DNA from: Sulfurospirillum sp.
GTDB lineage: Bacteria; Campylobacterota; Campylobacteria; Campylobacterales; Sulfurospirillaceae
Assembly (NCBI GenBank): GCA_014859685.1
Contig: JACUTU010000008.1
Coordinates: forward strand, 1-51,022
Direction of reading: 5' to 3'
Length of the DNA stretch: 51,022 nt
Of this stretch, positions 10,192-51,022 are shown piece by piece; within the stretch, counting starts at the first letter, position 1; each line of letters opens with the position of its first letter. A program made the translations under genes and the position numbers. The notes under the pieces are model-generated. The model was given only the letters and a program-made list of their open reading frames with translations. It was not told where the DNA came from and did no database searches.

Positions 10192-10617
10192 TTACATGTA
10201 AGGGCTAACTTTTTGCATGATGGCGTGCCAATCACGGCAAAAATGCTTTTTGATAAAACCTGTTGTGTGTGGCAAAAAGCAGTTGCTGCAATCTTGATGG
10301 AGTGCTTTTTCACTGACAAATACTTTGCTATTTTTTGCACTTATGATGCAAGTACTAAAAAGTGTTTTATCACGCATCTTTTTGATCCCATCATCATCAA
10401 AGCGAAAATGGGGACAGGCACACAAAAAACAATTCAGCTTTTTCATTGCGTGGCATTTGGTATTTTCCGCATACAGGGGACAAAAATCTGGCTCAAGCTG
10501 ACGCATATTGTCATAATCAAAATATGCTATAAGTTGTTCATCAGTCAAATTTATAAGTTTTTCTAGTAGTATTTTGTGCTTTTGTGCGTGTTGCTTGCAC
10601 CACTGAAGGTATGTCAA
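10192..10617 (-). CDS. Cysteine-rich small protein (zf-like / PF04071-type)
   Basis: A 141-residue protein whose middle, CPLYAENTKCHAMKKLNC then FLCACPHFRF, matches the pattern of the Cys-rich small domain family of unknown function. About eleven cysteines in all make metal binding likely. The start is a TTG (DNA: GGAG, then TTGACATAC), chosen by the upstream GGAG. The last codons and the stop lie inside a TTACATGTAA palindrome, the first copy of the repeat that marks the core genome. It faces away from the MFS gene, with which it shares a 150-bp divergent promoter region holding a second copy of the palindrome (10648). No function can be assigned. Confidence 0.7.
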   Translation of the reverse strand: MTYLQWCKQHAQKHKILLEKLINLTDEQLIAYFDYDNMRQLEPDFCPLYAENTKCHAMKKLNCFLCACPHFRFDDDGIKKMRDKTLFSTCIISAKNSKVFVSEKALHQDCSNCFLPHTTGFIKKHFCRDWHAIMQKVSPYM

Positions 10618-32041: not shown

Positions 32042-33068
32042 AGAGATCTATGGTATACGCAATATTTTAAAAACTTATGGACACAAACCTGTTTTAGACA
32101 TCTATGAACTTAGTATACAAAAAGGAGAGATCTTAGGCATTGTTGGTTCAAATGGTTGCGGAAAAAGCACCCTTTTAAGGCATCTTGCTTTTTTAGAAAT
32201 GCCTCACAGTGGCTCTATAAAATATAAAAACTTCGCACACACAGATATTCCCTTACATGTAAGAAGAGAGATAGGTATCTTATTGCCAGAGCCTTATTTG
32301 CTCAAAAGAAGTGTCAAAGATAACCTCCTTTTTGGTCTACATGTAAGAGGTGAAAAAAATGTACCTACTAAAGACATAGAAGAAGCACTTAAACTCGTTG
32401 GACTGATTCCAAAAAAGTTTCTCAACCGCCAATGGCATGAGCTTTCAAGTGGTGAAACGCAAAGAGTTGCACTTGCATCTAGACTCATTTTGAAACCACA
32501 AACCCTCTTGCTTGATGAGCCAACAAATAGCTTAGATTTTAGCGGGATTCCTCAATTTAGTGACGCTCTAATGCACGCCAATCAAGAGTGGGGTACAACA
32601 ATCATCATCGCAAGCCATGATCTTTTGTGGCTCTCAAGTATCACAACAAGGCAAATTGGTTTACATTTTGGGAGAATTATGGATTTTTCCACGAGCAATC
32701 TTGTGTTGGGTAAATGGCAAGAAGATGGCAAAAATAAAAGCTTTGATTTTGGTAACAATCAAAAAATCACTATACCAGCATCATGGCGTGTCGGAGAAAA
32801 AAGAGGCGTGGCGATAGATCCTCGAAAAATTTGCATAAGCTCCTCAGCTCCTTTGCATTTTGAAGACACAAAGATATATCTGCAAGGAACAGTAAGTGGT
32901 ATCAGCCGTCTTGAAAAAACTGATGAAATTTCCATCAAAATAGCCATAGGCTCTCAGACCCTCGAAGCCATCACAAATCAAGAAAATTTTGAAAAAAGTG
33001 CGGTTTCATTCTTGAACTCTGTATATATAAACTTCACAAAAGAATCTTTGCAAAACAAAGCAAGATAG
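32034..33068 (+). CDS. tupC: Tungstate ABC transporter ATPase TupC
   Basis: A 344-residue ATPase with Walker A GSNGCGKST, signature LSSGETQRVALASR, Walker B TLLLDEPTNSLDF and the ASHD switch. A C-terminal domain of about 120 residues (YLQGTVSGISRLEKTDEISIKIAIGSQTLEAIT) looks like an oxyanion-binding TOBE fold. It carries two TACATGTA repeats, both read as LHV. Confidence 0.92.
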   Translation: MGEEIYGIRNILKTYGHKPVLDIYELSIQKGEILGIVGSNGCGKSTLLRHLAFLEMPHSGSIKYKNFAHTDIPLHVRREIGILLPEPYLLKRSVKDNLLFGLHVRGEKNVPTKDIEEALKLVGLIPKKFLNRQWHELSSGETQRVALASRLILKPQTLLLDEPTNSLDFSGIPQFSDALMHANQEWGTTIIIASHDLLWLSSITTRQIGLHFGRIMDFSTSNLVLGKWQEDGKNKSFDFGNNQKITIPASWRVGEKRGVAIDPRKICISSSAPLHFEDTKIYLQGTVSGISRLEKTDEISIKIAIGSQTLEAITNQENFEKSAVSFLNSVYINFTKESLQNKAR

Positions 33069-33146
33069 AAAAATCACCTAACTGACTTTACGCACTTTTA
33101 AATACGGATATAGTAAGATATGAGTGTTCATCAATAAGGATTTTCA

Positions 33147-49124: not shown

Positions 49125-49218
49125 CCAACACTCCTCGCCCTTACATGTAAAGCAAAATTCTATCAATTTTTTGTTTAAAAAGAGTTACAAAAAGATTTCG
49201 TAAAAAGTAGCCTGTCCC

Positions 49219-49485
49219 GAATGGCACTTACTTAAGCAAAAAGTATACTAAAAAAGTGGAATGAAACTGGCTTTAGAGGAAGTATCGTAACCAAACGAAA
49301 TACTCCATAAAGCCAGCAATATGAATCATAACAAAAAAATTATAGGAAACAGAGGAGAAAGAATTGAGCCAAGAGCTATAAAAAAACGGCACAATGATTT
49401 TCCTTTGTTGATGTAACCTAGGAAAATAGTAAGAGAAAAAGTGAGGGCAAATGGTCACCTTAAAAAGCTTAAGTAAGTGCCATTC
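49219..49485 (+). mobile_element. 267-bp MITE-like remnant of an IS4-family element
   Basis: The ends are perfect 18-bp inverted repeats: GAATGGCACTTACTTAAG at 49219-49236 and its complement at 49468-49485. They are flanked by an exact 11-bp direct repeat TAGCCTGTCCC (49208-49218 and 49486-49496), i.e. a target duplication in the size range of IS4-type elements. Inside, on the + strand, NRGERIEPRAIKKRHNDFPLL and, one stop later, REKVRANGHLKKLK resemble the C-terminal tail of IS4-type transposases, running up to the right repeat. The rest of the transposase is gone, so movement would need a full copy elsewhere. Confidence 0.88.
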
Positions 49486-49518
49486 TAGCCTGTCCCCATT
49501 TTCTCTTTATTTAAAACC

Positions 49519-50108: not shown

Positions 50109-50420
50109 TTGATCAGCTACATTAAACTCCTTCGCCCACATCAGTATGTAAAAAATCTTTTTATTTTGCTCCGATGCTTTTTTCATTTGCACTTGTAACT
50201 GAAAATATTATTGCAACCTCTATAGCATTTGTGCTCTTTTCACTTCTTGCTAGTAGTATTTATGTACTTAATGACCTTGTGGATATACAAGAAGATAGAG
50301 AACACCCAAAGAAAAAAGACAGACCCCTAGCTAGTGGTAAAGTTAGCCCAAAAAGTGCAAAGCTACTTATTTTCACTTTAGCTACAGTGGTATTTATCTT
50401 TGCATTTTTAAAAGATATTT
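50109..50420 (+). pseudogene. 5' fragment of a UbiA-type prenyltransferase (decaprenyl-phosphate phosphoribosyltransferase-like), frameshifted
   Basis: ISYIKLLRPHQYVKNLFI is read in one frame from about 50112; at the T-run near 50160-50167 one base appears lost, and the protein resumes in another frame as FAPMLFSFALVTENI. The motif NDLVDIQEDREHPKKKDRPLASG is the aspartate-rich site of the family. After about 50420 the sequence changes to a methyltransferase, so the remaining two-thirds is missing. Both the frameshift and the truncation make it non-functional. Confidence 0.8.
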
Positions 50421-50932
50421 TAGAAAAAGATAATGGCCAAATAGAATATTTAGAAGAAAGTGAATATACACTTATTGAAAGTCCAAAAAAACAACCATCT
50501 GGACTTATTTTTGTAGGATATAGAAATAAAAAAATAAGAACAAAAGGTACAAGACCAGATACAATACATTTATCAAGAGTTCACAAACAACCAAATAGAA
50601 TATATTCATCAGATGGTACTCATCCAACATTATCATCACAAGAATCAGCAGGAAGATATTTTGTATATCATGATAATAAAGTTAGAAAACTAACATTAAA
50701 AGAGTGTTATAGACTAATGGGTTTTAAAGATGATTTTAAATTAATTGGTTCTAAAGCCAAATTATATAATAGAGTCGGAAACTCAATAGTTATTCCAATG
50801 GTAAAGGAAATAGCAAAACAAGTCAAGGAACAAATACTAAATAAAACAGATGAAATTATAGAATGTAAAAAACTTTTAAAACAAATGTCATTATTTGACT
50901 TTGACAATAAAAAAGACAAACTCGCTGGGTAG
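50421..50932 (+). pseudogene. 3' fragment of a C5-cytosine DNA methyltransferase, fused to the UbiA fragment
   Basis: The 3' part, LSRVHKQPNRIYSSDGTHPTL, RKLTLKECYRLMGFKDDF and YNRVGNSIVIPMVKEIA, matches the end of the target-recognition region and motifs IX-X of Dcm-type enzymes. Motifs I-VIII, including the PCQ catalytic site, are absent, so it cannot methylate. It is in frame with the second part of the UbiA fragment; an open frame of 252 codons (50174-50932) crosses the join. The DNA is more AT-rich than the core, consistent with acquisition. The join at about 50420 is estimated by family fit. Confidence 0.82.
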
Positions 50933-51022
50933 TTAAATACACAGCAAATCGTATTAATGGGGACAGGCTGAGAGCGTAAATCTAACTGTGTAAACCTAAA
51001 AAATTAAATTTATTTGATATAG

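What the first reader, a model, noticed from the sequence alone, without database searches (positions are those of the whole stretch)
49208..49496. Fresh-looking MITE with perfect 18-bp ends and an 11-bp target duplication
Ends and target copies are identical, which implies a recent insertion; the interior keeps only the transposase tail. A full parent element is probably active in the genome.
Basis: seen in the sequence. Interest (0 to 1): 0.55.

Follow-up and report, generated by a model that had tools for sequence, protein, structure and literature searches.

The report
Small transposon inside a repeat hairpin
A 267-base leftover of a jumping gene sits at a fixed spot inside a short DNA repeat that another mobile system appears to have spread, one of six such copies or pieces in this bacterium; it is a new example of a known kind of element.

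Summary
A 267-bp element (49219-49485) with perfect 19-bp inverted ends lies between two copies of TAGCCTGTCCC. It is an internally deleted IS4-family (subgroup IS4, ISPen1-like) element: leader hairpin and start codon fused in frame to the transposase tail. Six loci of the genome carry whole, cut or longer relatives.

The interpretation needs correction. The '11-bp target duplication' is part of a genome-wide REP-like repeat (GTAGCCTGTCCC: 36 copies, 0 in the reversed control) that brackets the genome's only Y1/RAYT-type transposase gene and forms REPIN-like hairpins. All six loci abut this repeat, so matching flanks say little about age. Copies differ by up to 11 of 267 bases and are mosaics. 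No full parent is in the assembly; the nearest parent-like copies are in other genera of the family, and in one of these genomes both left ends sit in the identical REP site.

Of 67 distinct flanking 11-mers of relatives from several phyla, 42 fit YCTGWCCC at 7 or 8 of 8 positions (background 0.28%). So the group has an intrinsic, near-palindromic target (about GGGTCWGACCC) that coincides with RAYT-type REP cores. REP-targeting ISs are already known; this adds a MITE and a phylum.

The parts
49207..49218 (+). Left part of the target REP, GTAGCCTGTCCC; its last 11 bases (49208-49218) are the left target duplication
   Evidence: same 12-mer 36 times in the genome, 0 in reversed control
49219..49237 (+). 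Left terminal inverted repeat, 19 bp, GAATGGCACTTACTTAAGC
   Evidence: same end in relatives of several phyla
49267..49316 (+). Hairpin of the transposase leader, retained from the parent IS
   Evidence: fold of 49219-49340 -24.1 kcal/mol, z -3.94; homologous leader at the left ends in G093 and G325
49321..49416 (+). Remnant reading frame: transposase start MNHNKK fused in frame to tail IIGNRGERIEPRAIKKRHNDFPLLM, then premature TAA
   Evidence: homology to tail of L056 and of the 453-aa transposase in L073
49332..49339 (+). Internal deletion junction CAAAAAAA; the C15 copy has 106 further bases between two copies of this 8-mer
49467..49485 (-). Right terminal inverted repeat, 19 bp; the parent's stop codon lies inside it (CTTAAG-TAA-GTGCCATTC)
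49486..49501 (+). Right target duplication (49486-49496) and rest of the REP, TAGCCTGTCCCCATTT
50956..50969 (-). Second, unoccupied REP copy in the window (AGCCTGTCCCCATT)
10407..10420 (-). REP-like copy with one mismatch (TGCCTGTCCCCATT), unoccupied

Best explanation
49219-49485 is a MITE made by internal deletion of an IS4-family, subgroup-IS4 (ISPen1-like) insertion sequence. It was moved in trans by a full-length transposase that is not in the present assembly. That transposase chooses an 11-bp, near-palindromic target (about GGGTCWGACCC; one half, YCTGWCCC, is most constrained), cuts it with an 11-bp stagger and so duplicates it. In this genome nearly all such sites lie in a REP-like repeat, GTAGCCTGTCCCCATT, that brackets the genome's one Y1 (RAYT-type) transposase gene and also occurs as paired inverted arms (REPIN-like hairpins). 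The element is therefore a non-autonomous transposon nested in another, RAYT-linked, non-autonomous repeat. Shown from sequence: the anatomy, copy number, REP targeting, deletion origin, target consensus, RAYT bracketing. Inferred: that the transposase alone reads the target, that transposition was in trans, and that the RAYT spread the REPs.
For: Ends and flanks. Six loci in G000 (C8, C3, C7 twice, C15, C21) abut the REP. The REP is not part of the element: 38 exact AGCCTGTCCCCATT against 0 in the reversed control, most without a MITE; the REP lies in either orientation relative to the element (C7:502911 and C21 against C8, C15, C7:497771); relatives have other 11-mers there. Deletion origin: C15 is a longer intermediate, 373 against 267 bp, the difference lying between two CAAAAAAA 8-mers; start and tail match an open 453-aa transposase in G325 with an IS4 model score of 205.7 bits, cut-off 115. 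Target: of 67 distinct right-flank 11-mers from 77 flanks (83 loci examined), 18 match YCTGWCCC at 8 of 8 and 24 at 7 of 8 in one orientation, against 0.28% of random 11-mers of the same loci; 19 of 41 testable two-ended loci have identical 11-bp flanks. Parent-type copies in another genus: both left ends in G093 sit after TAGCCTGTCCC, in opposite orientations of the contigs. RAYT link: the sole Y1_Tnp gene (C9:32501-32830) lies between inverted REPs at C9:32387 and 33127; in 17 genomes, 11 of the 30 Y1_Tnp neighbourhoods looked at hold the target core (22 hits in 90.6 kb, 0 of the reversed control).
Against: 25 of the 67 11-mers score 6 or less, 15 of them 5 or less (one of these, L072, is an artefact of the same locus as L078 read at a doubled end). 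The full-length copies nearest to it in the family/order do not fit well: G325 has GGGTGTGGCTC at the left end and G222 has ACCCCTGAGAA. 22 of 41 two-ended relatives lack identical 11-bp flanks, some through nested or chimeric insertions or wrongly paired ends. The C3 copy has discordant flanks (GGGACAGGCCC / TAGCCTGTCCC in opposed orientation) and C15 has 10 of 11. Three of six loci have lost one end. 19 of 30 RAYT neighbourhoods lack the motif, and 10 of 49 host genomes have no more motif than reversed control.
Confidence: 0.9

Rival explanations
1. The REP half-site is the true outer end of the element (a longer terminal repeat carried along), not a target.
For: All six loci in G000 and both in G093 carry it at the junction.
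Against: It is a direct, not inverted, repeat at 49208/49486; its orientation relative to the element flips between copies; dozens of REPs lack the element; relatives with the same ends have other 11-mers, duplicated.
Confidence: 0.02
2. The element does not transpose now; its copies were spread by recombination or by movement of the REPs/REPINs around them (RAYT carrying the MITE as cargo).
For: Copies are mosaics with all four combinations of left and right haplotypes; C3 has discordant flanks; no parent transposase in the assembly.
Against: Exact 11-bp duplications at C8 and near-exact at C15; insertion in single REPs and REPIN dimers, in both orientations, with unrelated outer flanks. Recombination explains the mosaics, not the duplications.
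Confidence: 0.08
3. The insertion is very recent and a full parent is still active in this strain.
For: Ends and flanks of the C8 copy are perfect and it has one private substitution among the copies. Full IS copies often fall in assembly gaps; in G093 both left ends lie near contig ends.
Against: All nine end sequences found in G000 are accounted for by the six short loci; only DDE_Tnp_1 hit is another IS; C8 and C7a share a stop codon in the remnant frame, and copies differ by up to 11 of 267 bases.
Confidence: 0.15

Closest known systems
IS4 family, subgroup IS4 (De Palmenaer et al. 2008, PMC2266710)
   Same: Ends fit -AATR--------WTW----; direct repeats 10-13 bp; full relatives about 1.5 kb, single transposase frame; the paper notes 'spectacular apparent insertion specificity' for some members (Table 1 and section read).
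   Different: Here a 267-bp deleted derivative; the text read does not tie subgroup IS4 to REPs. Figure 3 of that paper, which shows target sites, could not be read, so the consensus may already be drawn there.
ISPen1 (Pseudomonas), as listed in PMC7378034 (one passage seen)
   Same: Ends printed as TGGCACTTACTTAA..., IS4 family.
   Different: Full IS in Pseudomonas; target and copies not described in the passage seen.
REP-targeting insertion sequences: ISRm22 (IS4 family), ISPsy8, ISPa11, ISPpu9/10, ISRm19 (Tobes and Pareja 2006, PMC1525189)
   Same: Every copy at one fixed point of a REP; palindromic target; hybrid copies with discordant repeats explained by recombination (Results read).
   Different: Those are full ISs with 0-6 bp repeats in Pseudomonas and Sinorhizobium; here 11 bp, a MITE, and a Campylobacterota host. 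ISRm22 is placed in subgroup IS4Sa.
REP / REPIN / RAYT systems (GTAG REPs, PMC3733652, passages seen; REPINs, PMC3116915, abstract listing only)
   Same: The target repeat has a GTAG tag, lies next to the sole Y1_Tnp gene and forms inverted pairs.
   Different: A single arm has no evident internal stem-loop here; the palindrome comes from pairing two arms. Mobilisation by the RAYT is inferred.

Membership tests
MITE of an IS | Short (<about 500 bp), terminal inverted repeats, no functional transposase, several copies | tested here: met
   267 bp, 19-bp ends, 31-codon remnant, six loci in the genome; three of the six are truncated or partial
MITE of an IS | Derives from an identifiable parent IS by internal deletion | tested here: met
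   Leader, start and tail align with G093 and G325 copies; C15 is a longer intermediate
IS4 family, subgroup IS4 | Ends -AATR--------WTW---- | tested here: met
   GAATGGCACTTACTTAAG fits by eye (against Table 1)
IS4 family, subgroup IS4 | Direct repeats of 10-13 bp | tested here: met
   11 bp at C8; 19 of 41 testable relatives have 11 of 11
IS4 family, subgroup IS4 | DDE transposase with Y(2)R(3)E(6)K | tested here: inconclusive
   The deleted element lacks the region. The relative in G325 scores 205.7 bits for NCBIfam IS4 model NF033592 and hits DDE_Tnp_1; the string YKQRWQIEVDFRNIK fits the YREK spacing by eye only
IS4 family, subgroup IS4 | Phylogenetic placement of the transposase within the subgroup | not tested
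   No tree with reference ISs was made
REP-targeting element (type 1 association) | All copies inserted at the same point of a REP | tested here: met
   6 of 6 loci abut the REP; exact 11-base flank at one or both ends in C8, C15 (right end), C7 twice, C21 (reverse orientation) and C3 (right end only; left end altered)
RAYT-associated REP (the target repeat) | GTAG tag, high copy, inverted pairs, flanking a Y1 (RAYT) transposase gene | tested here: met
   36 GTAGCCTGTCCC; Y1_Tnp gene between inverted copies
RAYT-associated REP (the target repeat) | Stem-loop within each REP and mobilisation by the RAYT | not testable with these tools
   Dimer folds at -33 kcal/mol; no stem-loop seen by eye in a single arm; mobilisation needs an experiment

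The most novel reading that the evidence does not exclude
An IS4 subgroup spread over several bacterial phyla has settled on the core of RAYT-spread REPs (YCTGWCCCC) as its landing pad, so that one mobile system's non-autonomous repeats serve as safe sites for another's; hairpin or nicked states made by the RAYT might even attract the IS4 transposase.
Probability: 0.12. Interest if true: 0.6.

Novelty: new member of a known kind. Interest (0 to 1): 0.33.

Why it matters
It shows a concrete pitfall: when an IS lands in a REP, perfect 'target duplications' reflect the target repeat and should not be read as a clock. It also gives a defined 11-bp target for a widespread IS4 subgroup, a new phylum for REP-targeting, and a two-layer nesting (IS4 MITE in RAYT-type REP) that can be tested in the laboratory.

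Tried and rejected
Structured RNA and tRNA: no Rfam match at gathering score in the window or in L067, L055, L056, no tRNA. A homologue on plasmids or phages: none at E 1e-5 with the 267-bp element. The DDE_Tnp_1 hit at C23 as parent: rejected, its ends are AACTTTCGCACCTAA. The REP as part of the element: rejected (see rivals). Literature: searches gave no paper in the listings describing an IS4 MITE in REPs, or any in Sulfurospirillum; subscription papers and ISfinder are not in the library, and one search gave only unrelated papers in its first 10 of 20. An orthologous empty site proper was not obtained: the two sister genomes lack the REP as well as the element.

Rows dropped: one search used 77 right flanks from 83 loci; six loci had no right end found or no sequence beyond it. 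L072 and L078 are the same locus in opposite orientation and both stayed in the 67, L072 wrongly read at a doubled end. One search used 49 of the related loci plus six genomes of the order, not all 80 loci. The Y1_Tnp search was given 17 genomes, 14 of them chosen mainly for high motif counts, so its association with the motif is biased upward. Only 30 Y1_Tnp loci (29, one) were examined.

Full report
What is there. The stretch 49219-49485 has perfect 19-bp inverted ends and is bracketed by TAGCCTGTCCC. The window is contig C8 of a 2.1-Mb, 23-contig genome. The family is read as Sulfurospirillaceae (Campylobacterota) because a same-family genome, G331, holds the very locus (L072) that the named record of L078, a Sulfurospirillaceae MAG, also holds; this is an inference from kinship, the phylum being recalled.

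Copies. The element or parts of it occur at six loci: C8 (window, 267 bp), C3 (267 bp), C15 (373 bp), C7:497771-498014 (right end lost, 228 bp), C21 (left 114 bp only) and C7:502911-503064 (right part, carrying a 102-aa transposase tail, near the contig end). The alignment shows that C15 keeps 106 bases that the others lack, between two copies of CAAAAAAA, so the short form can arise from the C15 form by deletion between 8-bp direct repeats. In the window copy the deletion fuses the start MNHNKK to the tail IIGNRGERIEPRAIKKR in frame; a TAA then ends it after 31 codons, shared with the C7:497771 copy, whereas the C3 copy reads on to 55 residues and a TAG in its flank.

Mosaicism. Eight columns split the four long copies two against two. 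Three in the left block group C8 with C15, five in the right block group C8 with C7a; all four left/right combinations exist. The simplest reading is recombination between copies. With the discordant flanks of C3 this argues against a set of untouched fresh insertions.

The target is a REP. AGCCTGTCCCCATT occurs 38 times exactly and 5 times with one mismatch, against 0 in the reversed control; GTAGCCTGTCCC occurs 36 times against 0. Many lie as inverted arms 30-35 bases apart, such as C3:8010/8042 and C23:95132/95164, and fold as a 20-bp hairpin of -33 kcal/mol. The sole Y1_Tnp gene of the genome (C9:32501-32830, 64 bits, 219-aa frame) stands between a reverse copy at 32387 and a forward copy at 33127. 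This is the layout of a RAYT with its REPs. All six MITE loci abut this repeat: C8, C15 and C7:497771 with TAGCCTGTCCC (C15: one base changed on the left) before the left end; C21 and C7:502911 with the reverse, GGGACAGGCTA, at the retained end; C3 with TAGCCTGTCCC on the right and an altered GGGACAGGCCC on the left.

The wider group. The 102-aa tail found 146 relatives in the GTDB contigs, of which 80 were returned, mostly Gammaproteobacteria and Nitrospira. Most end in CTTAAGTAAGTGCCATTC or close to it. Of 77 right flanks (67 distinct 11-mers), 42 distinct ones fit YCTGWCCC at 7 or 8 of 8 positions in one orientation, against 0.28% of random 11-mers of these loci. The test consensus was drawn from the same flanks, so the figure is descriptive, but the gap is too large for that to matter. 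The remaining 25 score 6 or less. In the oriented set positions 1-2 favour G (33 and 31 of 67) and positions 4-11 read Y-C-T-G-A-C-C-C, which together resemble the palindrome GGGTCWGACCC; position 12 is C in 34 of 45 and T-rich bases follow.

Is the target a REP elsewhere too? In 49 genomes reached through related loci the pattern YCTGWCCCCWWT occurs 609 times against 186 for the reversed control; 39 genomes have more, 7 fewer, 3 equal, and 11 have at least 15 copies and three times the control. In 17 genomes chosen mostly for high counts plus the genus, 16 have Y1_Tnp genes; 11 of 30 neighbourhoods examined hold the core, 22 hits, reversed control none. So the core is RAYT-linked in several genomes but single-copy or rare in others, which favours a transposase that reads a sequence motif over one that reads REPs as such.

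Relatives near home. In the family (44 genomes) the 18-bp end (up to one mismatch) is in 5, own included; the REP 12-mer is in 25. Two genomes of the same genus have neither the end nor the 12-mer, and at the site next to the window's element, identified through the neighbouring gene (72-76% identity), they have no REP. G093, another genus, has two left ends, each after TAGCCTGTCCC, with a leader closely alike and, at one, an open transposase start of 175 residues running to the contig end. The tail search did not hit G093, so a full copy there is likely but unseen. G325 has an open 453-aa transposase behind an intact left end, but its target (GGGTGTGGCTC) and its right end do not fit. G022 has a remnant end after GGGGACAGTCTC.

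How it works, most likely. The parent transposase binds the 19-bp ends and inserts the DNA with an 11-bp stagger into a site close to GGGTCWGACCC. The MITE keeps all that is needed in cis. In this genome REPs supply nearly all such sites, so the element is funnelled into intergenic repeats. The leader hairpin (49267-49316; z -3.94), kept in the MITE and in the left ends of G093 and G325, resembles leader hairpins that in other ISs damp transposase translation from outside transcripts (recalled, not tested).

Compared with what is known. Subgroup IS4 of the IS4 family fits on ends and repeat length (PMC2266710, Table 1 and section 6 read). REP-targeting ISs, one of them in the IS4 family (ISRm22), were described in 2006 (PMC1525189, Results read). 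GTAG-type REPs with RAYTs are known in all proteobacterial divisions as then counted, epsilon included (PMC3733652, passages). What is added: a MITE, the 11-bp class, this host group, and the coincidence of one IS4 subgroup's target with RAYT-type REP cores in several phyla. I found no description of the last point in the listings of the searches named under Tried and rejected, but Figure 3 of PMC2266710 was not readable.

Verdict. Ordinary in kind, with an instructive target.

Noticed in passing
window 50174-50932 (+): A 252-aa frame joins the N-terminal part of a UbiA prenyltransferase to the C-terminal part of a C-5 cytosine DNA methylase, apparently a deletion fusion; an REP copy follows at 50956-50969.
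   Followed up: partly
L049 (G000:C23), about 2068-2997: A different insertion sequence with inverted ends AACTTTCGCACCTAA and a DDE_Tnp_1 hit, about 40 bases from an REP.
   Followed up: no
L060 (G000:C12:68631, 72155, 72189): Three REP copies share a different upstream arm, TTTAAAAATTATTC, instead of AAAAAGTAG-type sequence; two of them form a tandem.
   Followed up: no
L079, L094, L136: Nested or tandem insertions: an IS end directly follows a target copy or another IS end.
   Followed up: no
L078 / L072 (G331): A second short derivative, about 385 bp, with a 102-residue tail and a doubled left end, flanked by GTGCCTGACAC and its reverse complement.
   Followed up: partly
L056 (G000:C7:503229-503299): The frame upstream of the IS4 tail at the end of contig C7 reads NDIQKRGVQDVLIFAIDG, which resembles an IS256-type transposase by eye; not searched.
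   Followed up: no
G361:C48: The REP 12-mer recurs with the same spacings in two blocks about 3.5 kb apart, suggesting a duplicated REP cluster.
   Followed up: no
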